A DNA stretch of 64,000 nt from Alkalimarinus alittae (GTDB lineage Bacteria > Pseudomonadota > Gammaproteobacteria > Pseudomonadales > Oleiphilaceae), in the NCBI RefSeq assembly GCF_026016465.1, contig NZ_CP100390.1:1340001-1404000 (forward strand), written 5' to 3'. The notes below the pieces were generated by a model that saw nothing but the letters and a program-made list of their open reading frames with translations, did no database searches and was not told where the DNA came from. A program made the position numbers and the translations under genes. Positions 5,812-31,971 of the stretch are shown here, in pieces (the stretch's first letter is position 1; each line of letters opens with the position of its first letter).

Positions 5812-5837
5812 TTTTATTCATAGTGTAGGAGGTAACA

Positions 5838-7405: not shown

Positions 7406-7660
7406 ATGAGAGTTGTATCTTTTACTGAAGCAAGAAATGGATTAAAAGCTGTTTTAGATTCTGTCGTTAACGATGCAGATACCACCGTTATAACGCGCAG
7501 AGACTCAGAGGACGCTGTGGTAATGTCTTTAGATTACTACAATAGTTTAATGGAGACTGTTCATTTGTTAAGGTCTCCTGCAAATGCCGAGCATCTAAGT
7601 AAATCTATAGCGCAATACAAAAGTGGCCAAACAACTCAAAGAGAAATAATTGATGAGTAG
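7406..7660 (+). CDS. yefM: YefM antitoxin
   Basis: The protein has 84 residues. It starts MRVVSFTEARNGLKAVLDSV, followed by TVITRRDSEDAVVMSLDYYN, the canonical YefM signature. The C terminus (SIAQYKSGQ) matches the toxin-binding tail. It has its own promoter region with repeated TTGTACATG-like words upstream (about 7,347 and 7,388), plausible operator half sites. Its stop overlaps the toxin start. Confidence 0.95.
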   Translation: MRVVSFTEARNGLKAVLDSVVNDADTTVITRRDSEDAVVMSLDYYNSLMETVHLLRSPANAEHLSKSIAQYKSGQTTQREIIDE

Positions 7661-7916
7661 CAGGTTGCTTAGTTGGACAGATGAAGCGTGGAATGACTAT
7701 ATTTATTGGCAAGGTCAGGATAAAAAGACTTTAAAACGTATCAATAAATTAATTAGTGACACAATGCGCTCGCCATTTGAGGGTATAGGTAAACCTGAAC
7801 CTCTTAAAGAAAATTTGTCAGGTTTCTGGTCTCGTAGAATAGATGATACAAATAGGTTAGTGTATGTAGTCAATGACAAAGCATTGACCATAATTTCGTG
7901 CAGGTATCATTATTAG
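7653..7916 (+). CDS. yoeB: YoeB mRNA interferase toxin
   Basis: The toxin has 87 residues. Recognisable blocks are LLSWTDEAWNDYIYWQ, RINKLI, PFEGIGKPEPLKENLSGFWS, then RRIDDTNRLVYV and the C-terminal CRYHY with the catalytic His-Tyr end. YoeB cuts mRNA at the ribosome. The ATG at 7653 overlaps yefM by eight bases; a TTG at 7650 would add one residue. Confidence 0.95.
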   Translation: MSSRLLSWTDEAWNDYIYWQGQDKKTLKRINKLISDTMRSPFEGIGKPEPLKENLSGFWSRRIDDTNRLVYVVNDKALTIISCRYHY

Positions 7917-7935
7917 TATGGATATCAAACAAACT

Positions 7936-8039
7936 GCCAACAAGTGCCTGCATAGGACAAAGTACAGTTATCACCTTTTGTGAAAAAAACACTCACAAAA
8001 GTCGCCAACTGCACTTTTCCCATGAGGCAGGCGTTAACT
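7936..8039 (+). repeat. attC site 12
   Basis: It runs from GCCAACAAGTGCCTGC to GAGGCAGGCGTTAACT. TGCCTGC and GCAGGC are outer arms, and ACTTTTGTGA-like segments pair inside. Confidence 0.85.
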
Positions 8040-8048
8040 TACAAAACT

Positions 8049-8645
8049 ATGATCAAGATAATTGAAAACGAACTAGATAACGCTTTTCTGAAAAGAAAAA
8101 AGAAGGCAGTTCTTAAAAAGTTTGAGCCTAGAAAATCAAAGACTATTGAAGCGGCAAATCTTCTTTGTACTTTTTTAGTTGCCACAGACCGTCCTGCTGA
8201 GGCGCTTGAAATACTAAAGTCTTATTCTGAAAACATCCCTTTCATCGAACACAGATGGGAGCGCAGAATTGCGACTTGCCAAGCTATTTTGTTGCAAGCT
8301 TACATTGAAAAGAAAAACGGTAATATCGACGAAGCTAATCGACTTAATGAAATCGTCGTTAACAATGATTACTACCCTTATATTGAGTCGGGCCCTAAAG
8401 AAGCATATTTCAAAAAACTCTTAGAAGGTCTTAGGTCTACACCAGGTTTGCTTGTTTCTTGCGAAGTTGGGCACAGTGATACTTGCGTCATATATGCCGA
8501 AACTTTATTAAGCATGCTGTACTTCGAGCAGTTACACAAATCAATTTGTACGTTCAGTAAGGCTGAGGAAACATTGCTCCAAGCAGCTATGTCAGAAACA
8601 ATTGAAATGCTAAACAAGTACATAATTCATGGAATAAAAAGCTAA
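8049..8645 (+). CDS. Helical hypothetical protein (198 aa)
   Basis: I start at ATG 8049 because the longer frame to 7,980 lies inside attC site 12. The protein is almost all helical: paired helices such as ETANLL-like EAANLLCTFLV, RPAEALEILKSYSE and AILLQAYIEKKNGNIDEA look like TPR-type repeats in residues 35-115. There is no signal peptide. I recognise no named family. Its stop codon sits at the edge of the minimal attC at 8,641. Confidence 0.6.
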   Translation: MIKIIENELDNAFLKRKKKAVLKKFEPRKSKTIEAANLLCTFLVATDRPAEALEILKSYSENIPFIEHRWERRIATCQAILLQAYIEKKNGNIDEANRLNEIVVNNDYYPYIESGPKEAYFKKLLEGLRSTPGLLVSCEVGHSDTCVIYAETLLSMLYFEQLHKSICTFSKAEETLLQAAMSETIEMLNKYIIHGIKS

Positions 8646-8672
8646 CAAGGCTATCGTAGGGGCGTTATGGAG
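8641..8672 (+). repeat. Minimal attC-like site (about 32 bp)
   Basis: GCTAACAAGGCTATCGTAGG is followed directly by GGCGTTATGG. Both cores are present but the internal arms are almost gone. It may be a deleted attC or a hybrid. Confidence 0.6.
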
Positions 8673-8713
8673 TTCCAGGAACGAGTTCTGACAAATACAT
8701 GAGAATTGGTTTG

Positions 8714-9589
8714 ATGAAAACAGCTTTAAGTTTTTTTGTGATGTTTTTTCTGGCGGTATTCCCATCTATGCCATTTGCTGATGATGATAACTCCCTTATC
8801 ACAACAGTAGAGCGAATCGCCGACGAGCTAGGAGCTCGCGTGGGCTTTGGTGCTTATGATTTGGAGTCTGGTCAGCGGTGGGAATATCACGCTGACCAGC
8901 GATTTGCGATGTCCAGCACGTTTAAAACGCTTGCTTGTGCCGCACTGCTTCACCGGGTCGATGCGGGACAAGAGAATCTCGACAGAAAGGTGAGTTTTTC
9001 AGAGTCTGATTTGGTTACCTACTCCCCTGTTACGGAGAAATACGCTGGCGGGCAAGCCATGACCCTCTCGGATCTCTGTGAGGCCGCTTTGACAATGAGC
9101 GACAATACAGCCGCAAACTTAATATTGAGAGTTCTGGGTGGGCCGGCAAATGTTACATCGTTCGCCAGGGGATTGGGGGATGGTGTAACCCGTCTCGATC
9201 GGTGGGAAACGGACCTCAATGAGGCCGCGCCAGGCGATCAAAGAGACACCACAACTCCAAATGCGATGGTGACGAATCTTCAGGATTTGCTGTTGGGCGA
9301 CGCATTATCTGCAAAGTCTAGAGGTCGACTACGGGACTGGCTTGAGAGAAACCAGGTTGCAGATGGACTTTTTAGGGCTGTTGTACCCGAAGGCTGGATC
9401 GTTGCTGATCGAACTGGGGCTGGAGGTTTCGGATCGCGATCTATAACAGCAATAATATGGCCACCGGAGCGCCAGCCTATCATAGTGGCTTTGTACCTTG
9501 CGGAAACTGAGGCGCCTTTTTCAAAAAGAAATGACGCTATCTCGGAGATAGGTAAAGCGCTAATTGTGACCGTGAATAGGGGCCGATAA
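8714..9589 (+). CDS. bla: Class A beta-lactamase, RTG-box (CARB-like) type
   Basis: The precursor of 291 residues has a signal peptide (residues 1 to about 22). Active-site motifs are STFK (about 68-71), SDN (about 129-131), the omega-loop glutamate in RWETDLNEA, and RTG instead of KTG. The arginine in this triad is typical of carbenicillin-hydrolysing CARB/PSE enzymes, and RTG in particular marks the RTG subgroup. Cysteines at about 75 and 122 fit the usual class A disulphide. Start 8714 gives a compact signal peptide; ATG 8699 would add five residues. It is a complete cassette between attC sites. Spectrum and expression cannot be judged from sequence. Confidence 0.95.
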   Translation: MKTALSFFVMFFLAVFPSMPFADDDNSLITTVERIADELGARVGFGAYDLESGQRWEYHADQRFAMSSTFKTLACAALLHRVDAGQENLDRKVSFSESDLVTYSPVTEKYAGGQAMTLSDLCEAALTMSDNTAANLILRVLGGPANVTSFARGLGDGVTRLDRWETDLNEAAPGDQRDTTTPNAMVTNLQDLLLGDALSAKSRGRLRDWLERNQVADGLFRAVVPEGWIVADRTGAGGFGSRSITAIIWPPERQPIIVALYLAETEAPFSKRNDAISEIGKALIVTVNRGR

Positions 9590-9590
9590 A

Positions 9591-9660
9591 ACATAACCAA
9601 TGGCTGTTGGCGGACGCACCTACGCTGCGCTCCGGCACGCCGCAAAACCAAGCGTTATGG
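9591..9660 (+). repeat. attC site 14
   Basis: It runs from ACATAACCAATGGCTGTTGG to CAAGCGTTATGG. GGCGGAC, GCAGCGTAGG-type and GCCGC segments give the inner hairpin. The following toxin stop overlaps the core. Confidence 0.8.
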
Positions 9661-9957
9661 GTGTACAAGTCTTTCTCTCGCATCCATGTTTTTATGTAAA
9701 ATACGAACGATTTCAATACTTGTCTCGCTCGTACCACGGTAAAAAACAATGTGACTGGTAACTGGGAATTTTCTGTAACCTGTCTTAATATAATCGCATT
9801 CAGTTCCAACTCTTGGGGTTTTTGACAACATATGAAACGTATCATCAAATTGTCGTATATAAATTTTACGTTGTTCTTTTCCCCATTTTCGTTGGGTATA
9901 AATCGCAATCGATTTCAAATCAGCTCTAGCTTTAGTAGTAAGCGTAAATGTACCCAT
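9655..9957 (-). CDS. parE: ParE-family toxin
   Basis: This 100-residue toxin shows FTLTTKARADLKSIAIYTQ, RKIYIRQFDDTFHML, GTECDYIKTGYRKFPV and HIVFYRGTS, the ParE fold in order. The final strand IEIVRILHKNMD contains the conserved RILH motif. It overlaps parD by one base and reads leftward, opposite to the array. Confidence 0.92.
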   Translation of the reverse strand: MGTFTLTTKARADLKSIAIYTQRKWGKEQRKIYIRQFDDTFHMLSKTPRVGTECDYIKTGYRKFPVTSHIVFYRGTSETSIEIVRILHKNMDARERLVHP

Positions 9958-10196
9958 TAACCAAGTTCATCATCAAGTTCATTCATCAGGCTTTCATAGC
10001 TGTACTCTGCCGTACCACTTTTTTCACCTTCGTCGAGCAATTGCCTAAGAACGGCTATCTTTCTTTCGTTATCTTCAAACATTCTAAGCGCAGCTCGAAC
10101 AACTTCACTTGCTGAGGCAAAGCGACCTTCATTAATTTGGTTGGCAATAAATCCATCAAAGTGCTTACCAAGTGTCATACTGGTATTTTTTGGCAT
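9957..10196 (-). CDS. parD: ParD-family antitoxin
   Basis: The 79-residue protein has the ParD ribbon-helix-helix signature: SMTLGKHFDGFIANQI, followed by GRFASASEVVRAALRMFE. The acidic C terminus (ESLMNELDDELG) binds the toxin. It is first in the operon, consistent with autorepression. TATTATTAATTGGTACTTTA upstream is AT-rich and may hold the promoter. Confidence 0.92.
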   Translation of the reverse strand: MPKNTSMTLGKHFDGFIANQINEGRFASASEVVRAALRMFEDNERKIAVLRQLLDEGEKSGTAEYSYESLMNELDDELG

Positions 10197-10241
10197 AAGA
10201 TTACCTTATATATTATTAATTGGTACTTTATGGTACTACCC

Positions 10242-10295
10242 CATAACAAGTTGCTCAAGTCGGATTGTGGTAAATCGCTTAGCAAGGCGTTACAT
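10242..10295 (+). repeat. attC site 15
   Basis: A short site from CATAACAAGTTGCTCAAG to TTAGCAAGGCGTTACAT. GTCGGATTGTGG in the centre is shared with the inverted site at 11,418. Confidence 0.85.
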
Positions 10296-10296
10296 G

Positions 10297-10560
10297 CTAG
10301 CGAAATAGCTCACTATGAGTTCCAATCCTTGCAAGTTTTAAAGAGTTGTTATCTACTTTATATATCAAAACTAAATCTGGCTTAACATGACAATCACGGT
10401 AACCTTGCCAATTACCCGACAACAAATGATCAACATATTTATCTGGCAAAGTTTCACCAAGTTGTAATAGTTTAATCACGTGCCCAACTTCAACTACATC
10501 AGGTATTGGCAGTTTCGCAATTTTCTTAAAATCTTTTTTTAAATTGCGTTGCGTATTCAA
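10297..10560 (-). CDS. yafQ: YafQ-family mRNA interferase toxin
   Basis: The toxin has 87 residues. The blocks LKKDFKKIAK, LPDKYVDHLLSGNWQGYRD, CHVKPDLVLIYK and RIGTHSELF match YafQ, including the histidines and aspartates of its active site (CHVKPD and the C-terminal TH). YafQ cuts in-frame AAA codons on the ribosome. It follows dinJ with a 9-base gap. Confidence 0.93.
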   Translation of the reverse strand: MNTQRNLKKDFKKIAKLPIPDVVEVGHVIKLLQLGETLPDKYVDHLLSGNWQGYRDCHVKPDLVLIYKVDNNSLKLARIGTHSELFR

Positions 10561-10569
10561 GTGTGAGCA

Positions 10570-10842
10570 TTATTTCAAGCCATCAATGTCTAAATGGTTA
10601 AAAAGCTCTTCAATCGTTCCAGCTTTAGTGCCATTTCCAGACTCTAGCTCTTCAATTGCATTTGCTGTCAAGGTATTTGGTGTTTTTGCTTTAAGTTCAA
10701 AAGGTATTCCACCATAATTAATAACAGCTTTGGCAAATAGCTTTAAGGCTTGCGAGGTGCTTAGACCCATATCGTCACATACATTAGTAAATGCTAGCTT
10801 TGTGTCATGGTCTATGCGTGTACTTAGCATTTCTGTCTTCAT
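10570..10842 (-). CDS. dinJ: DinJ antitoxin
   Basis: The antitoxin has 90 residues with the RelB/DinJ N terminus (MLSTRIDHDTKLAFTNVCDD), then GLSTSQALKLFAKAVI and GGIPFEL, the hallmarks of DinJ. The C-terminal part ending EELFNHLDIDGLK is the toxin-binding region. It lies upstream of yafQ in the standard order. Confidence 0.93.
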   Translation of the reverse strand: MKTEMLSTRIDHDTKLAFTNVCDDMGLSTSQALKLFAKAVINYGGIPFELKAKTPNTLTANAIEELESGNGTKAGTIEELFNHLDIDGLK

Positions 10843-10901
10843 GTTTGATACCTATTTGCTTAATATGTAATACATAGTAAGACGAGGTATAGCAAAATGC
10901 A

Positions 10902-11003
10902 TGTAACAAGGCCATCTTGCGGATCTCGTTTTCTGTCACCTTTTATGCAAAGAAACGCATAAAAGTCGCCATCAAACTTCGACCGCAAATGACGGCGTTA
11001 GGT
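10902..11003 (+). repeat. attC site 16
   Basis: It runs from TGTAACAAGGCCATCTTGCG to GACGGCGTTAGGT. It matches site 5 over nearly its full length, including TTTATGCAAAGAAACGCATA in the loop. Confidence 0.9.
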
Positions 11004-11034
11004 GTGCTAACTCCTTGTATTTATAGTGTATATT

Positions 11035-11155
11035 TTACAGGGTTGTGACCGATAAACCTATTTCAGGAAAATCTTTTAGTTTATCGATACCAGAAAGAAG
11101 TTTCTGCGCGACATGTTTTGCAGCATATGTTTTTTTCTGCGACGAACCAAGTCGA
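11035..11155 (-). pseudogene. ParE toxin fragment, frameshifted
   Basis: On the minus strand this stretch reads YAAKHVAQKLLSGIDKL then KDFPEIGLSV and a stop, nearly identical in protein to residues 25-53 of the ParE encoded at 5437-5724. The start and the C-terminal half are missing, and two bases are lost at the join with the antitoxin frame (ACATATGC instead of ACCCATATGC). Differences from the intact copy are mostly third-position changes. No active toxin can be made from it. Confidence 0.85.
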
Positions 11156-11362
11156 AACTTCTTCACGGATTGCCTGCTCGCCTTTTGCGATACCTTCCAA
11201 AATTATCATCCGATCTACCATCAACTTGTAATCAGCTACATCAAGCAAATAGGCTGATGGCTGACCATGCTCAGTTATGAGAATAGGTTCTTTTGACTCA
11301 TGAAGGTCTGCAAGCAGTTTCGTTGCTTGCCTCTTTAAAGTAGTAACGGCTTCGGTTCTCAT
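11081..11362 (-). CDS. Phd/YefM-family antitoxin with foreign C terminus
   Basis: Residues 1 to about 68 are a normal Phd/YefM DNA-binding domain: TLKRQATKLLADLHES, PILITEHGQPSAYLLDV and MIILEGIAKGEQAIREE. After VSTW the frame runs out of phase through the ParE fragment, giving a tail (CCKTCRAETSFWYR) unrelated to any antitoxin. The natural C terminus has been lost, so it probably retains DNA binding but has no partner. The promoter probably lies at about 11,365-11,400, where TGATAC repeats occur. Confidence 0.7.
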   Translation of the reverse strand: MRTEAVTTLKRQATKLLADLHESKEPILITEHGQPSAYLLDVADYKLMVDRMIILEGIAKGEQAIREEVSTWFVAEKNICCKTCRAETSFWYR

Positions 11363-11417
11363 AGTGACACCTTAGATTAAAATGTATCACTACAGTATCA
11401 CTCTTCTTCAAAAAAAA

Positions 11418-11468
11418 ACTAACGCCTTGCTAAGCTGTCAACCCATCACAATCCGACTTGAGCAAAGC
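11418..11468 (-). repeat. Inverted attC site
   Basis: The complement reads TTGCTCAAGTCGGATTGTG and ends TTAGCAAGGCGTTAG. It is the same type as site 15 but in the opposite orientation to every other site in the window. Confidence 0.85.
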
Positions 11469-11483
11469 AATTAAAAAAGGCTT

Positions 11484-11512
11484 GTAGTAAAGCAATCTTG
11501 CGGAACTCGAAT
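11484..11512 (+). repeat. Half attC at the array end
   Basis: GTAGTAAAGCAATCTTGCGG then AACTCG resembles the left half of site 16 (GTAACAAGGCCATCTTGCGG). No right half follows. It marks the last recognisable array sequence. Confidence 0.5.
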
Positions 11513-11609
11513 TTCCTCACAATTAGTGGACACCTTGCTATAGTTATGGTTCACCCCTAGCGCTATAGATATCTAATAGCGTTGCAATGAAACTTAACTG
11601 GAGTCCAAT

Positions 11610-11927
11610 ATGACCAGCAACTTAATCAAGAAAATGCTCGACAATTGGGAGCTACGTTCAGCTCATATTAAAGAGCAAGTAAGTACCAAGGTTGTTCTCA
11701 ACAGGGAGGACCTAGTCAAGATAGAAGCGCTTGCAGAGGCTTATAAAATGCCTGCCAGTGATTTGCTAGCCGACCTCATCAATACTGTTTTGTTAGAAAT
11801 AGAAGAACAAATGCCCTATGTGGCTGGCGATAAAGTGATTCGAATTGAGGAGGGTGAGCCCATATACGAAGACATTGGGCGGACACCCGAATATATGGCT
11901 GCAAAAGCCAGATTGGAAAAGCAGTAA
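11610..11927 (+). CDS. Small protein of the 'type 1 pili tip component' family
   Basis: The protein has 105 residues. The C-terminal half carries the family pattern MPYVAGDKVIRIEEGEPIYE followed by DIGRTPEY. The middle (VVLNREDLVKIEALAEAYK) looks like a DNA-binding or dimerisation helix pair. Pseudomonas homologues are annotated as type 1 pili tip component, but that name has little experimental support, and no pilus genes are nearby. It is the first ordinary gene after the cassette array. TGGAGTCC precedes the ATG. Confidence 0.6.
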   Translation: MTSNLIKKMLDNWELRSAHIKEQVSTKVVLNREDLVKIEALAEAYKMPASDLLADLINTVLLEIEEQMPYVAGDKVIRIEEGEPIYEDIGRTPEYMAAKARLEKQ

Positions 11928-12206
11928 TAAAAGTAGACGCATTCATTTTATTGGTATCAAGATTAGAGGCCGTTTCTGGTTGTTTGCAGTGATTTGAAAC
12001 GTGATATCTGTTAGTGAGTTTAGACTCTGTTAAGTTGATATTTCAGTGCACGACAGACCAAACGATTCGGTATAGAAGTACTGATATGGTTCGCCCCTAA
12101 TGGGTAAGTGCGTACAAGTACGGATTATTTTGTCTATTGTGTTACGACAAAATGCTTTTTGGGTGAATATGAATAATAAAAACGACTATTCTTGGGGCGA
12201 GTATCT
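11928..12206. other. Intergenic region, no gene seen
   Basis: About 280 bases without a convincing reading frame on either strand. I see no attC core and no clear terminator. It probably carries the promoter of the following solute-binding protein. Confidence 0.5.
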
Positions 12207-18966: not shown

Positions 18967-19554
18967 ATGGTTATGGCTGAAGAAGATTCTGATCTGTTTT
19001 TTGAAGAAATGGGCGATGTAGAGCCGTTAAAAAAAAGAGACAAAGCACACCTTGATGCCCAGAAGGCGCTTACCCCTGGTCATTTGGTCAGGCGAGTAAC
19101 GGCCGTTACAGAAAAAACAGTTGATGATAACCACTTAACCGCTACAGACCATATTGAAATACTCTCATCGACGGACGTACTGGAATACAAGCAAGCTGGC
19201 ATACAGCATGGTGTGTATAAGAAACTTAGAATGGGGCGATACCCGATTGATGCAAGGCTTGATTTGCATCGAATGACGGTTGAGGTTGCCAGAAAAGAAG
19301 TCTTTCGGTTTATTCATGACTGTATGAAGTATGACTTACGTACCGTGATCATTTTGCATGGGAAGGGGGATCGAAACCCAGACAAAAAAGCGCTTCTTAA
19401 AAGTCATTTGGCTAAATGGTTACCCGAAATGGAAGACGTGATGGCGTTTCACTCTGCACAAAAGCACCACGGTGGAACTGGTGCCGTGTATGTTTTATTG
19501 AGAAAAAGTGACAATGACCGCCAAGCGAATCGGGAGCGTCACGGTTTACGATAG
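18967..19554 (+). CDS. smrA: Smr-domain endonuclease SmrA
   Basis: The protein has 195 residues. An acidic N terminus (AEEDSDLFFEEMGDVEPL) and a linker precede the Smr domain, which shows LDLHRMTVEVARKEVFRFI, VIILHGKGDRNPDKKALLK and HHGGTGAVYVLLRK. LDLH and HGKG are the family hallmarks. Smr proteins nick DNA or RNA; the stand-alone YdaL/SmrA type has no firmly proven role. ATG 18973 is an alternative start two codons later. Confidence 0.9.
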   Translation: MVMAEEDSDLFFEEMGDVEPLKKRDKAHLDAQKALTPGHLVRRVTAVTEKTVDDNHLTATDHIEILSSTDVLEYKQAGIQHGVYKKLRMGRYPIDARLDLHRMTVEVARKEVFRFIHDCMKYDLRTVIILHGKGDRNPDKKALLKSHLAKWLPEMEDVMAFHSAQKHHGGTGAVYVLLRKSDNDRQANRERHGLR

Positions 19555-19573: not shown

Positions 19574-20344
19574 TTAAGGGTAAGTTCTTAGACAGTCATT
19601 GATAAAAAAGTAAAAGCCTCGATAATCTTGCCTGAAATGCGAAATATCCATTAATAAGCTGTCACGTGTAGCAAAGTAGATGGCTCGTTGTCCATGATAA
19701 TCAATTACTTGGCTAGCTTGAGTCAGGTATATCCCAAACTGATCTAGCCGCCTCACCAATTTGGGCTCAATTGCTAAAAATACAATGCTACGGTGGCTTT
19801 GGATAAAGAGAGAGATAGCGGCAAGGTATAACCCTATATTGATAAACGGAAACTTTCGCTGCTGCTCGGTCATCTCAGTCGATAAGTCGTTAATGACGCC
19901 TCTGGGAGAGAGCTGTTCTCCACTCCTCTGCCTGAAATTTTTAGTAATGACCATGCGAGAAATTTCGCAGTAGGAACCATAAGGTAGTGTGTCTGGGTTA
20001 ATTAAATTTCGGTAAAATGCTTGGCTGTAATTCCGCTCAAAAGGGAGTAATAGCCCGCGCTTTTGAGTCGGCGGGATAATCAGTCTTATGCTGCCAGCGG
20101 CTTCTTGTGTTGTTTGAAGCCTGAGTAAACACTGTAGAGAAAAGCGATCATACTCATCTCGCTCTCTGAGTTTATGGTGATAGATATCGTAGCCAAACTC
20201 TTCGCAGTAGGTTTGATAACGCATCTTATAGATCTCATCATACTGGTCTGGCGTGCATACCTGCTGCAGTTGAAAGTAGTCCGCAAACATTTGAGCTAAA
20301 GCTGGCGAACTGCTTTGCTTCAGGTGAAGGGGAGCTTGGTTCAT
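19574..20344 (-). CDS. PEP-CTERM/exosortase-associated acyltransferase
   Basis: The protein has about 256 residues in the GNAT-like acyl-homoserine-lactone-synthase fold. Matching blocks are EIYKMRYQTYCEEFGYD, a DEYDRFS segment, SIRLIIP, and CEISRMVITKNFR followed by RSGEQ. Members of TIGR03694 are found with exosortase and PEP-CTERM gene sets; no exosortase is in this window. The product has not been established for the family. The start at 20344 (MNQAPLHL) was chosen for size; a start at 20377 would add eleven residues. Confidence 0.8.
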   Translation of the reverse strand: MNQAPLHLKQSSSPALAQMFADYFQLQQVCTPDQYDEIYKMRYQTYCEEFGYDIYHHKLRERDEYDRFSLQCLLRLQTTQEAAGSIRLIIPPTQKRGLLLPFERNYSQAFYRNLINPDTLPYGSYCEISRMVITKNFRQRSGEQLSPRGVINDLSTEMTEQQRKFPFINIGLYLAAISLFIQSHRSIVFLAIEPKLVRRLDQFGIYLTQASQVIDYHGQRAIYFATRDSLLMDISHFRQDYRGFYFFINDCLRTYP

Positions 20345-20377
20345 AATGATTTTTTTCTCACCCTCGGTAGTTGTCAT

Positions 20378-22728: not shown

Positions 22729-24084
22729 ATGGATTTGTTATTCCGGATTGAGCCAGTTCAGTCTGAAGCTCTTTTAGATACAGACAGCGCTCATAGAGAC
22801 GCTTCATTTACAAACTTATCAGCAGATAATCATTTTACCTTCTCACCTTTGGGTGGCCTAATTGGGCGCTCGACAGAATGTGATTGGGTGTTAGCTGACC
22901 CTGATCTTCGCCTCTCAGGGAAGCATGCTGCAATCTCATTTGAACATCATCAATATCAAATTACAGATCTTAGCACTAATGGGTTGTTTGTTAATGATCA
23001 GTTAGAGCCGTTAGGTAAGGGAAATACCCACGCCATTAATACCGGTGACCGGTTTGTAATGGGGCCATTTTGTATGGTGGCCAGTGTTGCTAATGCCGTT
23101 AACACACCCGACATTGATTTGACCGAAATGCTAACGGATGAAGAAGGTATTCAGCCCTTAATGCCGGATGACTCGGCCACTGATGAAATATCACTGGTTG
23201 AGCATGAGCACCTAATTAGCGCAAATGGAACGAGCTTTGATGACCTGCTTGAATTCCCCACGCCTAAGCAAGAAGAGCCTGTACCCCTCGAGGTAACGGA
23301 CCAAGCTAATGTAAGAAGGGAACCTGCTGAGCCGGTTTCTTCTCATACGATTGAATCTGTCGCTCTTCCACCTTGTAACAATCCGCCTACAGTCAGCGCA
23401 AAAAGAACATTACATCATACGGCTGAACCATCTGATCGAGGCGACAAGCATTTACCATTATTTCAGTTTTTACGTGGCGCGGGTTTAGATGATGAGCTTC
23501 TTTTGCACCCCGAACTCAATGAATTGATGTTCAACTTTGGCGCTTTATTAAAGCGTTATACGGGTGAGATTATGAAGTTGATGGGAGAGCGAAGCCGCTA
23601 TAAAAACCAATGTCGGTTAGATATGACATTGGTGGCCGCCGAGCATAATAACCCGCTGAAATACTGTGTAAATGAAGTACAAGCATTACGTGAGATGATC
23701 ATTTCCCCGCAGCGCGAAAATCTATCTGGCGGGCAGGCCATTGAGTCAGCGATGGAGGATATCCGTGATCATTTTTCTCGCGTAGAAAAAGGGTATCAAG
23801 GGACGCTATCTTCGCTGATTGATTTTATCGGCATGACAGACGGGAAGACGGCTTCTTCTGCTATTACACCCCATAAAAAACAACCCACTCAAACCTTATC
23901 TAATATGCCTTGGCATTACCGTAAGCGACTAAAACAGTTGCAACAAAAAACGGCGATGTTAAAAGACCCAGGGTATTACTCCGATGAGTTTTTCTCTCCT
24001 CGCTTTGCCTATTTTTATCAAAATCCTGAGCGTGCCAACCAGTATTTAGACTCAGCTACCCCTAAAACAGAAAACCCCAGGTAG
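22729..24084 (+). CDS. tagH: T6SS-associated FHA protein TagH
   Basis: The protein has 451 residues. The N-terminal FHA domain (about 38-105) shows IGRSTECDWVLADPD, LSGKHAAISFE and DLSTNGLFVND, the Gly-Arg, Ser-x-x-His and Asn residues that bind phosphothreonine. After an acidic linker, residues 240-430 form the ImpI/VasC-type C-terminal domain (LFQFLRGAGLDDELL-like FQFLRGAGLDDELLL, then AIESAMEDIRDHF). FHA proteins link threonine phosphorylation to secretion assembly. It begins the operon; no PppA or PpkA gene is present here. Confidence 0.88.
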   Translation: MDLLFRIEPVQSEALLDTDSAHRDASFTNLSADNHFTFSPLGGLIGRSTECDWVLADPDLRLSGKHAAISFEHHQYQITDLSTNGLFVNDQLEPLGKGNTHAINTGDRFVMGPFCMVASVANAVNTPDIDLTEMLTDEEGIQPLMPDDSATDEISLVEHEHLISANGTSFDDLLEFPTPKQEEPVPLEVTDQANVRREPAEPVSSHTIESVALPPCNNPPTVSAKRTLHHTAEPSDRGDKHLPLFQFLRGAGLDDELLLHPELNELMFNFGALLKRYTGEIMKLMGERSRYKNQCRLDMTLVAAEHNNPLKYCVNEVQALREMIISPQRENLSGGQAIESAMEDIRDHFSRVEKGYQGTLSSLIDFIGMTDGKTASSAITPHKKQPTQTLSNMPWHYRKRLKQLQQKTAMLKDPGYYSDEFFSPRFAYFYQNPERANQYLDSATPKTENPR

Positions 24085-24221
24085 AGTGCTTTAGGTGCAC
24101 CAATAGCAAGCGTTAATCGTATGTAGGGTCACCGTCCGCTGGATAGCGGTCTGTAGGATAGCTGCCTGAAGGGTAACAATAGGCTGGTAATCCTAAACGG
24201 GATATAGAGGAAAGGAACTCA

Positions 24222-24686
24222 ATGACTAAGTATTTCATATCAGTGTTTTTAAGCGTGATGCTATGTAGCATTTTGAGTGGGTGTGCGAGTTGGTTTGTAT
24301 CTGACATCACAAAACTAGATATTCGGCTCACGGCATCAGGCGATTTAAACCCCGATATATCGGGTAGGCCTTCACCATTAGTGGTCCGGCTCTATGAGTT
24401 AAAAGCGCCTTCTATATTTGAAAATGCTGACTTTTACAGCCTTTATGACTACGGCAAAGAAACGCTTGGTCCTGATTTTGTGGAAATGGAAGAGCTGACA
24501 CTCAAACCAGGCGAACAATTAAAGATGAAGTTGGCTCTTCAAAATGACACTAATTACATTGCTATTTTAGGCGCATATCGTGATATGAATGGGGCTAATT
24601 GGAGGCGCATTATTCCAATGTCACTAAAGAATAAAAACAGAAAGAATATTGTGTTTTCCGGCAGCAGCATAGACGTACTGGACTAG
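24222..24686 (+). CDS. tssJ: T6SS outer-membrane lipoprotein TssJ
   Basis: The protein has 154 residues with a lipoprotein signal whose lipobox LSGC ends at about residue 21. The mature domain has the transthyretin-like pattern of TssJ: LDIRLTASGDLNPDISGRPS, PLVVRLYELK, FENADFYSLYD, then a C-terminal TNYIAILGAYRDMNGANWR. TssJ anchors the TssJLM membrane complex to the outer membrane. It lies between tagH and tssK, the usual order. Confidence 0.93.
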   Translation: MTKYFISVFLSVMLCSILSGCASWFVSDITKLDIRLTASGDLNPDISGRPSPLVVRLYELKAPSIFENADFYSLYDYGKETLGPDFVEMEELTLKPGEQLKMKLALQNDTNYIAILGAYRDMNGANWRRIIPMSLKNKNRKNIVFSGSSIDVLD

Positions 24687-24709
24687 ATAACTAAATAAAG
24701 GGTTTCGCC

Positions 24710-26035
24710 ATGGATAAGGTGATATGGAGCGAAGGTATGTTTCTTCGTCCTCAGCATTTTCAGCAGTTTGAACGATATATAGAGGATCAGGTTGTTTCTC
24801 GTAACCGCTACTTTACACCCTATTATTGGGGTGTAAAAACATTAGAGTTTGATTTGTCACTACTGTCGGTTGGTAAGGTGGCGGTGGTGTTTGCTGAAGG
24901 TGTTTTTCCTGATGGTAGTTTGTTTAACGTTAATTATGACCCAGACTTTCCCTTAGTGATACAGGTAACTAAAGGGCAAGAGAATCAATGCCTTTATCTG
25001 GCTATTCCAGCTCAAATTAACGGAGCTGTAGCGAGTGACGAATCAGCGCATAGTCAAGGTGTACGATACCGACAGAAACATCAGGACATTAGAGACAGTC
25101 ACGGTGTTGATAATGATCGAGTGTATGCGATTGCAACCGGCGACCTAAACGTTCGACTGTTGACAGAAGACCAGCTAGAAGATGCGTTTATTGCTTTGCC
25201 AATTGCTCAGATTAACGCCGTTAGTGTTGATGGCTCGGTTGTGCTCAATTCACTCTTTGGTGCGCCTGCTATCGATATGTCTATTCATGCTGAATGTATG
25301 ACGAGGTTGACTGATCTCGTTATTTTAATGCACGAAAAAGCAAAGCAGCTTGCGTCGACGATAGAGAGTGGCAAGGGGAATGGAGCAGGCACGGTGGTTG
25401 ATTTGTTGATGCTAAAAGCACTTAACAGTTGGGGGGCAGAGCTAACAATACTAACTCAGCAATCACCTTTGCACCCTTACAAATTGTTTAAACGTCTCTC
25501 TATGTTTGTTGCAGAAATTAGTACTTTTGCACGGGCTGAACGAGTGGCGGTGATAGGCGTTGAATACAGTCATATAGCGTCTTCTCAGAAATTGCAGGCA
25601 CTCATAGAGAACGCGAGAGTATTGGTTTCAACAGCCTTCAAGAGTAAAGCGGTTGCTTTACCGGTGCAGCGTAAGAAGTTTGGGATAAGTGTGGTAGGCC
25701 TACCCACCGAGTCGATGGTAAATGATGAGTTTATCTTAGCAATAAAAGCAGATTTGTCAGCAGACGCCATTCGTAAACTGGTCAGCAGTAAACTTAAAGC
25801 CGGAAGTATTGATAATATTAAAGACTTGGTTAACTTGCAGTTACCTGGCTGTGTTAAAGAACTGCTACCCGTCACGCCCCGCCAGATTCCTTATCATGCA
25901 GGCATGCACTATTTTCGCTTGCTACCAGATGCTGAGATGAAAGGGCGTATAAAACACTCAAACGGCGTTGGGCTTCATGTTTCGGGGGATGTTCCGGGTA
26001 TGGAGTTGGAGTTTTGGGTTGTATCTGCAGAGTAA
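24710..26035 (+). CDS. tssK: T6SS baseplate protein TssK
   Basis: The protein has 441 residues, the normal length. It opens VIWSEGMFLRPQHFQQFER, the nearly invariant TssK start, followed by YYWGVKTLEFD. Later blocks include HPYKLFKRLSMF and the end LPGCVKELLPVTPRQIPYH with YFRL. TssK forms trimers that connect baseplate wedges to the TssL/TssM membrane complex. It is 23 bases after tssJ. Confidence 0.95.
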   Translation: MDKVIWSEGMFLRPQHFQQFERYIEDQVVSRNRYFTPYYWGVKTLEFDLSLLSVGKVAVVFAEGVFPDGSLFNVNYDPDFPLVIQVTKGQENQCLYLAIPAQINGAVASDESAHSQGVRYRQKHQDIRDSHGVDNDRVYAIATGDLNVRLLTEDQLEDAFIALPIAQINAVSVDGSVVLNSLFGAPAIDMSIHAECMTRLTDLVILMHEKAKQLASTIESGKGNGAGTVVDLLMLKALNSWGAELTILTQQSPLHPYKLFKRLSMFVAEISTFARAERVAVIGVEYSHIASSQKLQALIENARVLVSTAFKSKAVALPVQRKKFGISVVGLPTESMVNDEFILAIKADLSADAIRKLVSSKLKAGSIDNIKDLVNLQLPGCVKELLPVTPRQIPYHAGMHYFRLLPDAEMKGRIKHSNGVGLHVSGDVPGMELEFWVVSAE

Positions 26036-26133
26036 TGTTTTATCGGTATCAGCACGAAAAGCAGCACAGGCGCAGGCATTGTTACAGGTATTGTTACATA
26101 AACGATGATAAACAGACTCTAAGGAAAGAGGCT

Positions 26134-27111
26134 GTGGGATATACAGAGACAATGGATAGTTTACTTAAAGCAGAAAATCACATCTCACCTATTACAGGGA
26201 AAAACCGAGAGGTTATGTTAGAGGTCATATCTGAAAAGACTGTTGTACAAGTTGAGCCCATTGAGCCAGATCAGTCTTCAGTATTTGATGAGAAAACCAT
26301 TGTATTAGACGAGAAACCCAAACGCAGTATTAGCGATTATACGCCTGATGTGGCTGGCTCTTTTTCTGATCGCCAGAGTTCAGATGGGTATTCAGAGGGC
26401 TCGCAGTCTGCTATGCATCGTCGAACCGTTAATGACAATATGCTAGTGAATTGCGCGATGCCGTTAATCCATCAGGCAATGAGCATGGCGTCATCGTCAG
26501 AGCCTGCCGATATTCAAGCTGTTCGGTCTAGTCTGATATCTGATATGAGACGCTTTCAAAATAAAGCAGAACAGTGTATTAGCGATCAACGCCATATTGT
26601 GGCCGCTCGATATATACTCTGTTCGTTTATTGATGAAGCCATTGCCACAACCCCTTGGGGTGTGTCGCATCGCTGGGGGGCTGAAAGTTTGTTGAGTTGT
26701 TTTCATCACGAAACGTATGGTGGAGATGGTTTTTTTACGTTACTTGAGCGGGCCATGCAGCAACCCCAGCAATATTTGGATTTATTAGAGTTGATGTATG
26801 TCTGTCTTTCGCTTGGCTTTTCGGGGCGTTATCGTGTTGATGCGCAGGGCGCAACCAAGCTAGAAAACATCCGCGAATCTATGATGACAACAATCGCGGC
26901 TAATCAGAAGCCTGATAATAGAGGCGTGGTGGTAGGAGATGTTCATCGCCAGGTGGCGATAAAGAAACGAGCAAAGTGGCTAGGGCCTGTTGTTATTTCG
27001 ACACTGTTATTAGGCAACGCTGCAGGCTATTGGGTTTTATCAAATCAGTTAGAGGCGCGTATGGATACAGCCTCTGAATATGTATTAAGTAGCATGGGTG
27101 TATCAAACTAG
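26134..27111 (+). CDS. tssL: T6SS inner-membrane protein TssL (DotU-like)
   Basis: The protein has 325 residues. An acidic, poorly conserved N-terminal section of about 110 residues precedes the DotU core: NCAMPLIHQAMSMA, ISDMRRFQNKAEQ, ARYILCSFIDEAIATTPWG and LMYVCLSLGFSGRYRV. One C-terminal membrane span is VVISTLLLGNAAGYWVL. I use GTG 26134 because AAGGAAAGAG is eight bases before it; ATG 26152 is the alternative. It lacks a C-terminal peptidoglycan-binding domain. Confidence 0.9.
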   Translation: MGYTETMDSLLKAENHISPITGKNREVMLEVISEKTVVQVEPIEPDQSSVFDEKTIVLDEKPKRSISDYTPDVAGSFSDRQSSDGYSEGSQSAMHRRTVNDNMLVNCAMPLIHQAMSMASSSEPADIQAVRSSLISDMRRFQNKAEQCISDQRHIVAARYILCSFIDEAIATTPWGVSHRWGAESLLSCFHHETYGGDGFFTLLERAMQQPQQYLDLLELMYVCLSLGFSGRYRVDAQGATKLENIRESMMTTIAANQKPDNRGVVVGDVHRQVAIKKRAKWLGPVVISTLLLGNAAGYWVLSNQLEARMDTASEYVLSSMGVSN

Positions 27112-27179
27112 CGCTTTTAACGCCAACTTGAGCATACTTGCCTGAAACAACAACGAGCGGATCAAATGGAATTGAGCGC

Positions 27180-28583
27180 ATGAATTGGACGGGTATTCGT
27201 TTTTTTAGTAAAAAACGAGAACAGACATCATCAATCGAACTCTCAGAGACAACCCTCTCTTCAAAGACTTATCAAGCTTTGTTTCGGCAGCAGCTTAAGG
27301 CATTAAGAGAGGGGATGGGAGAGAAAACGTTTGAGCGTTTTTATAAAAAACCACTGAGCCATAAAACGCTCTACTGGGTGTTAGAGTCTCCTCATGCCGA
27401 CTTGGTCGCGCTGAGTGGACGCTCCGTTGCAGACGTAACCCCTCGTATTAAACATCAACAAAGTGGGTATACGTTACCTTCTTGGTACAGTGAGGGCTCA
27501 TCGTTATTCATGAGGCTGCACTTTGAGAATGAAGTGTACCGCTCAAACTACTCATACGACGATACACTCCAGCCTTTGGTCGATATGTTAGGCAAACGTC
27601 GACATGTAAAGCGTTTTGGTGGCGTGCTGATTTACCTCCACCGGCATGATCTAGAGGTCGATAGTGCTCCTGCTTGGCTGAGCAAGATGGCTTCATTTGT
27701 TGGTCAGGCTTCTTTACTAGCAAAACAAAACCTTCCCGTATATCTCGTGCTTGAAGGTGTCGGTTTATCTAGCCGTGTATCCACGCCTATAGGGTTGTTT
27801 CGAGACGAAGAAACAGTATTGGCTGAACAATTTGGACAATGGTTTTCTCAGGCACAAGCAGAACTTAAAAACCGATTATTGAGAAAATCACTTAAGGATG
27901 TTCAGTATGTTCATGATGTTGAAACCCGCAAAGCCGCGTTTGCAGAACTCAATGCAATAGAACAGGGCGTTCAGCAGCTCAAACAAGTCTCCGAGCAGTT
28001 CAATCATCGTTGGCACTTTTCTGGAAAATCTATCACCCCTTGGGTTAGAGCCGTTTTTATTGCACCTAATAGTCGCTCTGTTGTTGGTATGTATTCTGTT
28101 CATCGTTTGCTCTCCAACACTGAGCAATCTCAACCAATCGAATCTAGTAGTAATCAGTGGTGGCAGCGATTTAGCAATATTCTGCACCAAGATAGAGGGT
28201 GCGGTAAGGCTGAACCTGAAAACAACACCCACCAAAAACTGATCATGATATGTATGGGGGTTGCCGTATTGTTTGGGCTGGCTTGGAGTCAGTTGATGTG
28301 GCGGGACTATGCGCATGCGGGTGCAATGGTAGACCGGTTTAACGAACAACTTATGCCTTTGTTATCTGTTGATGCGAATGGACCGGGTAGTGTAATAGGG
28401 TTTGATCGTGTTTTAGAACGATTGATGTTTATTGATCGGTTTAATGATGACCTAAGTGAAGAGAAGCGTCTTGCGTTGTGGCCTAGTGCATTTATGAGGC
28501 AGACCGCCGACAGCCAGCAGCAAACGTTAGCTGTTATTTCAGAGAGTATGCTAATGAAGGAATTTAATACCGCATTAGAGCAC
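27180..28583 (+). pseudogene. tssM: TssM-like protein, N-terminal part, split by IS3 element
   Basis: This segment, 468 codons, occupies the tssM place after tssL. A cytoplasmic part (1 to about 350) has VYLVLEGVGL (about 190) and VRAVFIAPN (about 300), which resemble IcmF strands, but I see no P-loop and no N-terminal membrane hairpin. One membrane span lies at about 354-374 (MICMGVAVLFGLAWSQLMW), followed by a helical periplasmic segment. The frame is broken after residue 468 by the IS element. Removing the element and one 6-bp repeat joins it in frame to 29821-31056, giving about 879 residues, shorter than typical TssM (about 1,100). Confidence 0.75.
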
Positions 28584-28595
28584 ACTTTGTTCTGG

Positions 28596-29405
28596 TCAAC
28601 TCCAGCCGGACACTTTCCTAAAGGAATTCTCAAACTCAATTGGCGACTGATCAGCATTAGCTGAATGTAGTCGATCAACATTATAATATTTCATGTATTT
28701 TGTTACGTCTTCTTGCATATGTTCACGCGTTGGTTGCGGCACTTTAAGCAACCAATCATGTTTTAAACTACCGAAAAAACGTTCAACAACAGCGTTATCC
28801 CAGCACGCTCCAACATCACCCATGCTCGCACGACAATTTAACCTTTTCAATAAACGCCTAAAGCCATTACTTGTGTATTGAGAGCCGCGATCACTGTGGA
28901 ATACCACCCCTTTTGGAGGTTTTCGCAAGTGATGTGCTTTTGTTAGTGCTTTCTCCACTAGATTACGCGTCATGCGCTTAGATATATGCCAGCCAACAAT
29001 ACGGCGTGAATATAAATCCATCACAATGGCTAGATAAAGCCAGCCTTCACCTGTCTTTAAGTAACTTACATCGCCAGCCCATACTTGATTTGGCCCAACA
29101 GGGTTAAAGTTCATGTTTAGCAGGTTGTCTGCAACACTATCGCTATGTTTTCGTTTTGTTGTGACTTTATAAGCAATACGCTGGGTCACAACTAACTTCA
29201 GTTTTTTCATTAATTTAATTACGCGATAACGCGTTACTTTAAAGCCTTCTTTGCGTAATACCTTAACAAGCTCTCGACTACCCAAGCTGTTTCGACTTGC
29301 TTGAAACAAAACTTTAGTACGTCGATACAAGCGCAGTGTTTCATCGTTTATTAATTCACCTGGTTTTTTTAACCAAGCATAATAAGCGGATGAACTAACC
29401 TGCAT
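28596..29405 (-). CDS. IS3-family transposase OrfB (integrase core)
   Basis: The 269-residue frame holds the DDE integrase core: first Asp in VWAGDVSYLKTGEGWLYLA, second in VVFHSDRGSQYTS and Glu in DNAVVERFFGSLKHDWL. An HTH_21 region lies at about residues 25-80. It is produced in this family as an OrfAB fusion by -1 frameshift. The run A-AAA-AAG on the coding strand near the end of orfA (about 29,500) is a good slippery site, and the orfB frame is open upstream of ATG 29405. All motifs are intact. Confidence 0.95.
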   Translation of the reverse strand: MQVSSSAYYAWLKKPGELINDETLRLYRRTKVLFQASRNSLGSRELVKVLRKEGFKVTRYRVIKLMKKLKLVVTQRIAYKVTTKRKHSDSVADNLLNMNFNPVGPNQVWAGDVSYLKTGEGWLYLAIVMDLYSRRIVGWHISKRMTRNLVEKALTKAHHLRKPPKGVVFHSDRGSQYTSNGFRRLLKRLNCRASMGDVGACWDNAVVERFFGSLKHDWLLKVPQPTREHMQEDVTKYMKYYNVDRLHSANADQSPIEFENSFRKVSGWS

Positions 29406-29464
29406 TGCTTGGCACGCTATTGATATGGTGTACTTTGTACCAAGCTTACTGATAAATGAATATT

Positions 29465-29752
29465 TTATTTCATTTCTTTCGCAAAGAAGGCGCTGGCCTT
29501 TTTTAATATCTCACGCTCCATTTGTAAGCGCTTATTATCTTTTCTAAGCTGAATCAGTTCTGCTCGTTCATCAACTGACAGCATTTCACCTGAAGCCTGC
29601 TTTTTGTGTTTTGCGACCCAGTTATATAAGATTTTGTCAGTGACGCCTAATGATGCGGCAGCCTCTACAACGGTATAATTTTGTTCGAGCACTAAAGCAA
29701 CTGCTTCTTGTTTAAACTCGTCTGGATAACTTTTATTTGTTCGTTTAGTCAT
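29465..29752 (-). CDS. IS3-family transposase OrfA
   Basis: This 95-residue protein has an HTH_Tnp_1 domain: SYPDEFKQEAVALVLEQ, then TVVEAAASLGVTDKILYNWV. A leucine-zipper-like helix (IQLRKDNKRLQMEREILKK) follows and leads to the frameshift site. Starting at ATG 29752 (MTKRTNKSY) is standard; the upstream ATG 29782 would add ten residues. It recognises the element ends. Confidence 0.93.
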   Translation of the reverse strand: MTKRTNKSYPDEFKQEAVALVLEQNYTVVEAAASLGVTDKILYNWVAKHKKQASGEMLSVDERAELIQLRKDNKRLQMEREILKKASAFFAKEMK

Positions 29753-29814
29753 ATTCACCTCAATAATAGGATTATATTCCATTATTAAAGTGTCCTGTTA
29801 ATTCAAACACAACA

Positions 29815-31056
29815 GAGCACCCCGTTCGATTTTCAGTGGCTAATGGCAAAAAAGGCTGTGAGTGGGAAAAGGACGCGACAGGGCACTCAAAATACTGGAC
29901 CCAACAATCTACGGATGTCGATTATCGCGAGTCATTTCGTACTCAAGTAGATAAAAAACGACCTCATGAGGCGTTAATGATCGACAAAGACTTTTTACTT
30001 GATCGAGCGGCCACGACTCAGTATCCGCCACTTTTTAATCAAGCTGACTATCAAAATGTTGCTGTGTTGGTGCGCATCCCCGATGCAAAGGGGCAAGGCA
30101 AGTGGATTCTACCTCATGCTAGTTTCTCCGACGACATCAAGCAGGTTGCCACGCATTTGGGCATTCCTATCACCCTTGAAGGAGAGAGGGCCATTTCGTT
30201 TGAACATTATGATTGGGCGGCATCGGTTGAATTTATGGTCGTGGTGATGGCTTCGAACGTTGAAAAAGATCGATACGAAAACTTGGGGAGTGTATGGAAG
30301 CATCTCAACCTAGCGTTTGAGTTGGAAGAGTTTAATTTTGTTTTCAAGAATACCCAAGGTCCAAAATTGACTAAAACAATGCATTATCTGGGAGAGATGA
30401 ATCAGGTGGCGCGCGGATACTATCAGGCTGATAACCCTGCGCCCATTGTTTTTAAAGCAGATGAAAGCACTCATTTTAAAAAGAACGCTGCATTTAAACA
30501 ATTGCTGGCACTGTTTGAAGATAGCACTGCACCTAAATGGAAAGAAAAAATGGAAGCCCTAGCGGGTTGGTTTGGTGTGAGTGAGCAAGAATCCAATAAA
30601 CGACACCTGTTTGTGTCTCACTATGTGCCTGATTATGAGTCGCCTACGGGCTACGTTGTGAAAGGGATTAGACCCTTTGGAGAGGGGCGTGTTGAGGTTA
30701 TTGAGACAAATCCGCCGCAGTTAAAAGCAGACAGTTCGGACCCATTTCGTTACCAGTTTGGAGACTTTAAAACGCTGGGTAAAACAGGGTTTAGTTGTGA
30801 AAAAGCGTCTCTATATGTCACTCCTAATAACAATATACCTTATGAGTTTCGGTTTAGTGTTCCCGAGCAGTATGACGGCGATGCCCCGTGGATGAAAGAA
30901 CCCGAAAACCCTAAAGACTCTATACTGAAACAAGCCGGCATCAAGGGGAAAGAGGCTAAAGAAAAGGCATATTTAGAAAAACTGAAGGCGATTAAGAAAT
31001 GGATTGAGAAAGATACAAGATCTGTTCGCATTGACCGGAATGAACTGTATAAATAA
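29815..31056 (+). pseudogene. TssM-like protein, C-terminal part, split by IS3 element
   Basis: About 411 codons continue the frame of the upstream segment. The first residues EHPVRFSVANG follow naturally from TALEH at 28583. The sequence is beta-rich and unlike textbook TssM C termini; I recognise blocks such as LVRIPDAKGQGKWILPHASF and HYVPDYESPTGYVVKGI only as plausible folded protein. The end is basic (LKAIKKWIEKDTRSVRI). A GTG at 29836 could start a separate product, but no ribosome site is convincing. It may be a diverged TssM periplasmic region or a fused domain. Confidence 0.65.
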
Positions 31057-31082: not shown

Positions 31083-31111
31083 AAAAGAGGGTGATTTCCC
31101 CTCTTTTCCTT
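31083..31111. terminator. Rho-independent terminator, probably bidirectional
   Basis: AAAAGAGGG and CCCCTCTTTT flank a short loop, with A and T runs on both sides. It ends the T6SS-like operon and the convergent lipoprotein gene. Confidence 0.85.
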
Positions 31112-31125: not shown

Positions 31126-31854
31126 CTAAAAACAAGCCAATGTTTCGTTCACTGCTTTCGCATAGAGCGTTCCAAATTGCTCGCGATCTTTATCATTAAT
31201 GCCCACTACCCAAGCCTGAGAGGTTTGTCCTGAAAACTGATAGTACAGTTGCTGCTCAGGATATGGGGAGCTGACGCTGACTTGGTCTGCAAAATCCCAT
31301 AAGCCTGGTTGTGCGTACTCGTTATCTCGAATCTGATCTAGGATATTTCTCTGAGTGACTCGGTCATGATAGACCAATGCGGTATTGTCAGTGTTTTCTA
31401 TCAGTGAAAAACGGTGAGAACCACAAGTCTTGGGGAACTGATAATGACAGAATTGAAGTGGTTCTGCGTTTGCTTGTTTGGCTGAGGTAAGGGGTTGAGC
31501 GGTGCAGTGTATACGAATGGTTTGAATGATTTTTCTGATGGTTAAATCGTGACCGTAACGGCGGGACAGCCGGTTAATATTGCCTGATATCTCATTATAG
31601 CCATCGGCGTCATACTGCAGTTGCTCAGGTGAATCATAATGAGTTGCTGGCGGGTTTGATATCTTGCCATTTTGCGGTTGAGTTAGCCCAACAGCCCGAT
31701 ACTCAGCATCGTCAAATCGTACGTTGCTAGTACATGCGGTTAGGCTGGCCAGTACCGATGGAATAACAAGCGCCAAAACCATATTTTTGACCGGCGTGTT
31801 AAGCGCGAAAACTGAATTTAAAAAAGGGGATATAGCTAAAAAATGGTGTGACAT
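31126..31854 (-). CDS. Hypothetical lipoprotein or secreted protein
   Basis: The protein has 242 residues and no recognised family. ATG 31854 is preceded by AAGGATTC at a good distance. A hydrophobic stretch ends in SLTAC at about residue 41, a lipobox that implies lipidation, though the leader is long; a later ATG at 31782 would shorten it. The mature part has four cysteines, including HCTAQ, FCHYQF and TCGSH. It converges on the T6SS-like operon across the shared terminator; a link to secretion is not shown. Confidence 0.55.
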   Translation of the reverse strand: MSHHFLAISPFLNSVFALNTPVKNMVLALVIPSVLASLTACTSNVRFDDAEYRAVGLTQPQNGKISNPPATHYDSPEQLQYDADGYNEISGNINRLSRRYGHDLTIRKIIQTIRIHCTAQPLTSAKQANAEPLQFCHYQFPKTCGSHRFSLIENTDNTALVYHDRVTQRNILDQIRDNEYAQPGLWDFADQVSVSSPYPEQQLYYQFSGQTSQAWVVGINDKDREQFGTLYAKAVNETLACF

Positions 31855-31971
31855 GCTGCGAATCCTTCGCTCAATAATAACCACCTCTTAATCCGTTAAG
31901 AGGGCTGAGCGCCTATTCTATCAAATAGTCACTCAACACAGAAATATAAAATTGTTACTCAGTAGAAAATT

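What the first reader, a model, noticed from the sequence alone, without database searches (positions are those of the whole stretch)
22729..31056. Compact T6SS-like operon with only TagH, TssJ, TssK, TssL and a divergent TssM-like protein
The operon has the FHA protein, baseplate adaptor and membrane-complex genes but no tube, sheath, ClpV, VgrG or other baseplate genes, and ends in a terminator. The TssM-like product has no visible P-loop, no N-terminal membrane hairpin, one membrane span and an unfamiliar C-terminal half. It may be a dispersed T6SS, a relic, or a reduced membrane complex with another use. Family identities of J, K and L rest on conserved blocks; the alternative use is inference.
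Basis: partly seen in the sequence, partly recalled or inferred. Interest (0 to 1): 0.7.

Follow-up and report, generated by a model that had tools for sequence, protein, structure and literature searches.

The report
Type VI secretion operon broken by deletion
The odd five-gene operon is one half of an ordinary two-part bacterial type VI secretion system whose end was lost through a large deletion at a mobile element, so the system is probably dead in this marine bacterium.

Summary
Only its first 469 residues are TssM. A 1,227-bp IS3-family element (28588-29814) follows. The 413 residues after it belong to another gene: they match residues 1142-1554 of a 1,555-residue OmpA-domain protein at 88% in congener G002, where the two break points lie about 14 kb apart.

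Four of four congeners have an intact TssM (1,085-1,144 aa, above the TIGR03348 cut-off), with a kinase and Hcp downstream. In the window genome no Hcp, no TssM core and no kinase orthologue were found. Its sheath and baseplate genes sit in a second cluster (tssA-B-C-E-F-G-clpV, about 3.01 Mb); vgrG lies elsewhere.

Best reading: a split T6SS inactivated by an IS-bounded deletion, too recent for the remaining genes to have decayed. No other use is needed.

One real oddity survives. This genus's TssM lacks the N-terminal membrane hairpin and the P-loop; an invariant ESPHA motif may sit where GPPGAGKT should be. A profile of its N-terminal ~490 residues matched none of 292 other genomes sampled from the order.

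The parts
22729..24084 (+). tagH, FHA-domain T6SS protein, intact frame
   Evidence: TIGR03354 173 bits, PF20232, PF00498
24222..24686 (+). tssJ, outer-membrane lipoprotein, intact frame
   Evidence: TIGR03352 134 bits, PF12790
24710..26035 (+). tssK, baseplate adaptor, intact frame
   Evidence: TIGR03353 341 bits, PF05936; only TssK match in the genome
26014..27111 (+). tssL/dotU, intact frame; the true start may be downstream of the listed TTG (not tested)
   Evidence: TIGR03349 182 bits; 46-60% identical to the matching stretch of 4 of 4 congener loci
27180..28587 (+). 5' piece of tssM, residues 1-469, with one membrane span; truncated
   Evidence: 39-61% identity to congener TssM N-termini, ending at about residue 497 of 1130 in G001
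28588..29814 (-). IS3-family insertion sequence (transposase ORFs 29465-29782 and 28596-29405 on the - strand)
   Evidence: NF033516 and rve hits; 4 copies in the genome; ends set from the copies
29815..31056 (+). 3' remnant of another gene (OmpA-domain protein in G002), not tssM
   Evidence: 88% identical to residues 1142-1554 of a 1555-aa G002 protein
31083..31107 (+). terminator-like hairpin after the remnant
   Evidence: scan (7 found, 7.5 expected by chance)

Best explanation
This is the membrane-complex half of a canonical T6SS that is encoded at two chromosomal loci in this genome (genus of Oleiphilaceae-like marine gammaproteobacteria; placement from the titles of two related records). 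Locus A, as seen in congener G001, is tagH-tssJ-tssK-tssL-tssM-PP2C-Ser/Thr kinase-hcp; locus B is tssA-B-C-E-F-G-clpV. In an intact relative, A would supply the TssJLM channel, the TssK adaptor, the Hcp tube and phospho-control through FHA protein, kinase and phosphatase, while B would supply sheath, baseplate wedges and the recycling ATPase (inferred from the families). In the window's strain a deletion of about 14 kb (by G002 coordinates) joined the middle of tssM to the last quarter of a downstream gene, leaving one IS3 copy at the junction. The likely route is recombination between two IS copies in the same orientation, or an IS-adjacent deletion. TssM keeps its cytoplasmic part and membrane span but has lost the periplasmic arm that contacts TssJ, and Hcp is gone, so no secretion is expected. 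Shown: gene content, break, IS, and the failure to find Hcp and TssM core. Inferred: the deletion route, its size in this lineage, and the loss of function.
For: TssM is intact in 4 of 4 congeners and above the TIGR03348 cut-off (410-452 against 388 bits). PP2C, kinase and Hcp follow it in G001; a kinase orthologue and an Hcp match lie at the locus in 4 of 4. Flanks are collinear: two upstream genes (18967-19554, 19574-20377) match 4 of 4, the gene at 31126-31884 matches 4 of 4. In G000, PF06761, PF06744 and PF05638 each gave 0 matches, while the same searches hit the other 4 of 5 genus genomes. The downstream piece is 88% identical to a G002 gene about 13.7 kb from the equivalent tssM point. 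The IS is identical over 1,227 bp to two of the three other genomic copies. Locus B: ClpV and TssA also. tagH, tssJ, tssK and the tssM piece have no stops and pN well below pS, similar to intact congeners compared with each other.
Against: The ancestral arrangement is inferred from G002; in G001 the gene matching 31126-31884 follows hcp directly, so the content of the segment lost in this lineage is unknown. The missing target duplication is weak evidence, because I saw one at only 1 of 4 IS copies. Of the three upstream genes that I call mtnB, mtnD and mtnC (names recalled), matches were found in only 2, 3 and 2 of the 4 congener stretches. Synonymous sites are near saturation, so the loss cannot be dated. 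The phosphatase was not searched for in G000. No expression or secretion data exist.
Confidence: 0.93

Rival explanations
1. A reduced TssJKLM-TagH membrane complex has been kept for another job, with the fused 879-residue protein as its working part.
For: tagH, tssJ and tssK keep open frames with pN well below pS against G001 and G003; tssL is open too.
Against: The two pieces come from different genes, and an IS with transposase genes lies between them. Four of four congeners carry the longer operon. Locus B is still there in the same genome, as expected of a recent break.
Confidence: 0.03
2. The system still works: a distant TssM or Hcp that the profiles miss, or one on an unassembled replicon, replaces the lost parts.
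For: VgrG, ClpV, TssA and the sheath and baseplate genes remain.
Against: PF06761, PF06744 and PF05638 each gave 0 matches in a one-contig genome listed as 99.99% complete.
Confidence: 0.04
3. Assembly error: the IS repeats caused a false collapse of the stretch between two IS copies.
For: The IS has two other identical copies in the genome, the classic setting for misassembly.
Against: No TssM core, Hcp or close kinase match was found anywhere in the single contig, where a misplaced stretch would be expected to turn up.
Confidence: 0.05

Closest known systems
Canonical T6SS (TssA-M) membrane-complex operon, as in Vibrio cholerae and EAEC
   Same: tagH-tssJ-tssK-tssL-tssM gene set; the C-terminal part of congener G001's TssM matches solved TssM chains (6ixh, 6hs7, 4y7m, 4y7l)
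   Different: Split over two loci; TssM has one span and no P-loop; in the window it is truncated, and no Hcp or kinase orthologue was found
Citrobacter rodentium tssM interrupted by a premature stop (PMC4256274; abstract and passages seen)
   Different: There transcriptional slippage yields the full protein; here no 3' part of tssM was found in the genome
T6SS loss in some Ralstonia lineages, and decay of auxiliary toxin clusters there, IS among the causes (PMC11481896; passages seen)
   Same: T6SS genes lost in some members of a group that otherwise has them
   Different: Different genus; the IS cases there are in auxiliary clusters, whereas here an IS-bounded deletion removes a core gene's 3' part and hcp

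Membership tests
T6SS | TssJ, TssK, TssL, TagH families at the locus | tested here: met
   NCBIfam models above cut-off
T6SS | Sheath, baseplate and ClpV (TssB, C, E, F, G, H) and TssA | tested here: met
   Second cluster in the same genome, L007
T6SS | VgrG spike | tested here: met
   1 match over cut-off in G000
T6SS | Hcp tube | tested here: not met
   PF05638: 0 in G000, present in the other 4 of 5 genus genomes
T6SS | Full-length TssM | tested here: not met
   Truncated at residue 469; PF06761 and PF06744 gave 0 matches in G000
T6SS | PAAR tip protein | not tested
   No search was made
T6SS | Protein secretion or sheath contraction | not testable with these tools
   Needs bench work
TssM/IcmF (congener copies) | TIGR03348 score above cut-off | tested here: met
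   410-452 bits against 388 in 4 of 4
TssM/IcmF (congener copies) | Three membrane spans and Walker A motif of the typical member | tested here: not met
   One span and no [AG]xxxxGK[ST] in 4 of 4; the control, G003's second TssM, shows three spans and GPPGAGKT by the same method
IS3 family | Two-ORF transposase with rve core and inverted ends | tested here: met
   NF033516 289 bits for orfB (cut-off 160); orfA alone 51 bits, below it, but PF01527 59 bits above its own cut-off; 4 copies, ends at 1227 bp; inverted ends seen by eye

The most novel reading that the evidence does not exclude
This genus runs a working T6SS (in the strains that keep it) with a TssM whose cytoplasmic domain is a pseudo-NTPase: no membrane hairpin, the P-loop replaced by an invariant ESPHA motif at the same place, and a kinase (with a phosphatase, seen in G001) in the same operon. 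That would be a natural test that TssM nucleotide binding is dispensable.
Probability: 0.4. Interest if true: 0.45.

Novelty: new member of a known kind. Interest (0 to 1): 0.22.

Why it matters
It removes a false lead: the five-gene "reduced T6SS" is a deletion product, and the 879-residue protein joins two different genes. It gives a clear case of T6SS loss by an IS-bounded deletion in a genus whose other four held genomes keep the genes. The side result, a TssM without P-loop or membrane hairpin in all four of those genomes, bears on the open question whether TssM needs to bind nucleotide (reported important in Agrobacterium, dispensable in Edwardsiella; PMC6960284 and PMC4632598, passages seen).

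Tried and rejected
A reduced T6SS with a new function was rejected on the congener comparison. A second TssM copy or a moved TssM 3' part was sought with PF06761 and PF06744 in the genome: none found. The idea that the second piece is a fast-evolving TssM end was rejected: no credible hit to four TssMs, but 88% to another gene.

A structure of the TssM piece was predicted from three sequences, with mean pLDDT 47.5, too low to use; a fold search on it failed because the machine was busy and was not repeated. A profile comparison of the genus TssM N-terminus with a canonical TssM places ESPHA over GPPGAGK but scores only probability 1.7%, E 0.03, so that correspondence is a lead, not a result. 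A PDB search with the N-terminal alignment found nothing. Rfam found nothing in window 1-32000. A literature search for TssM lacking a P-loop (TssM, lacks, P-loop, transmembrane, type VI, all required) returned 0 papers; that is one narrow search. Two wider ones gave 49 and 9 papers, of which I opened passages of a few. A search for Oleiphilus with type VI secretion gave 4 papers; in the one opened (PMC5847120, passages) the phrase "type VI" occurs once, in the reference list.

In one search my tssL query was translated out of frame, so its tssL rows are invalid; one search replaces them. In one search the control row for G003's second TssM read the wrong strand; one search replaces it.

Full report
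What is there. HMM scans confirm TagH, TssJ, TssK and DotU/TssL in order at 22729-27111. The next open frame, 27138-28664, gave no T6SS hit in Pfam or NCBIfam at E 0.1, and neither did the frame 29836-31056. Between them lie two transposase ORFs of the IS3 family on the minus strand.

The two pieces are not one protein. A search of 58 genomes with the first piece found relatives in 5, all of the window's genus (window genome included), and in the other four it is the start of a single open frame of 1096-1159 codons. These four proteins (1085-1144 aa from the first start) all pass the TssM cut-off, TIGR03348 (410-452 bits against 388). The window piece aligns to their first 453-517 residues at 39-61%. 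The second piece has no credible match to any of the four (best E 2.3). Searched on its own in 58 genomes, it matched G000 itself, G002 at 88%, and G017 marginally (E 6.8e-4). In G002 it is residues 1142-1554 of a 1,555-residue protein with an OmpA domain, encoded downstream of that genome's tssM operon. By G002 coordinates the two break points lie about 13.7 kb apart.

The insertion sequence. Four copies lie in the window's genome. Compared, they give a 1,227-bp element at 28588-29814 that begins TGTT and ends AACA. Two other copies are identical to the window's over the full length; the fourth differs. One of four copies (L039) shows a 5-bp flanking duplication, ATAGG; at the window copy, L038 and L040 I saw none by eye. 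Its absence is compatible with a deletion but does not prove one.

What was lost. In G001, tssM is followed by a PP2C phosphatase, a Ser/Thr kinase and Hcp. ORFs of similar sizes follow tssM in G002-G004; the kinase orthologues and Hcp matches fall on them, while the phosphatase-sized ORFs of those three were not scanned. G002 has, further on, a 532-residue ORF with a VasX_N match (28.7 bits, cut-off 27), a 324-residue ORF without a hit, two ORFs of 340 and 341 residues with only a sub-threshold lipoprotein signal, and then the 1,555-residue gene. In the window's genome, searches for Hcp, IcmF-related and IcmF_C domains gave 0 matches, while each hit the other 4 of 5 genus genomes. Its best kinase match is 30% identical, which I take as a paralogue; the phosphatase was not searched for. 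Two upstream genes and the downstream gene (31126-31884, lipoprotein-like by eye) match all four congeners; the three genes that I call mtnB, mtnD and mtnC (names recalled) were found in 2, 3 and 2 of the four stretches. So this is a local event.

The rest of the machine. TssC occurs once in the genome, at 3014585-3015481. Its surroundings encode TssA, TssB, TssC, TssE, TssF, TssG and ClpV in one run. VgrG occurs once, at 3401561-3402994. TssK occurs once, in the window. So this genome has one T6SS split over two loci, and the window holds its membrane half. TssC and TssK lie far apart in G001 and G002 and on different contigs in G004 and, for this system, in G003, which also has a second system. 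No PAAR search was made.

State of the remnant. tagH, tssJ, tssK and the tssM piece have no internal stops. Their pN (0.08-0.25) is far below pS (0.64-0.76) against G001 and G003, similar to G001 against G003 (tssL was not in that test, and no significance was computed). Synonymous sites are near saturation, so this shows only that decay has not had long to act.

The oddity that remains. This holds for 4 of 4 congener proteins as well. A control, the second TssM of G003, shows three spans and GPPGAGKT by the same method. The first ~490 residues as a profile matched only G000 among 293 genomes sampled from the order. A pattern-based scan of the 84,980-species collection returned two loci, in an Oleiphilaceae and a Hahellaceae MAG, whose contig lengths equal those of the G003 and G004 contigs; it could only find relatives that share one of two short peptides. 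One of five N-termini matches Pfam IcmF-related_N, weakly (E 1e-6). An invariant stretch, VLESPHA, with more invariant positions after it, falls over the canonical WYVIIGPPGAGKTTVL in a low-scoring profile alignment. My reading is a diverged TssM N-domain that no longer binds nucleotide; the folding model was too poor to test it.

Mechanism and verdict. In EAEC the TssM C-terminal periplasmic domain is what binds TssJ (PMC3213119, passages), and the TssM C-terminal domain is needed for T6SS function (PMC4256274, abstract). The window's TssM stops about 100 residues past its membrane span. With Hcp also not found, the system should not assemble or secrete; this is inference. The finding is an ordinary T6SS, broken by an IS-bounded deletion; the claim of a reduced system with another use is not supported.

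Noticed in passing
window 1-12000: A run of small ORFs with short repeats ending in GCGTTA and toxin-antitoxin genes (RelE/StbE at 2768-3013, YoeB at 7650-7916), which looks like a chromosomal integron cassette array; no integrase was looked for.
   Followed up: partly
window 8699-9589: A class A beta-lactamase ORF inside that array (NF033103 320 bits, cut-off 200; nearest named families CARB/PSE/RTG, below their own cut-offs).
   Followed up: partly
L008 8225-11617 and its counterparts in L009, L010, L011: TssM with no P-loop and one membrane span in 4 of 4 congeners; an invariant ESPHA motif near where the P-loop would be.
   Followed up: partly
L037 10583-19925: In G002 the hcp gene is followed by a VasX_N-like ORF, an ORF without hits, two ORFs of nearly equal size (340, 341 aa) and a 1,555-residue OmpA-domain protein, perhaps an effector cassette; in G001 the gene matching window 31126-31884 follows hcp directly.
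   Followed up: partly
G003 contig C11, about 69600-106500: G003 carries a second T6SS: three further TssC matches (177 to 445 bits), a TssK, a three-span TssM with P-loop, two Hcp and a VgrG match. Its TssM served as my control.
   Followed up: partly
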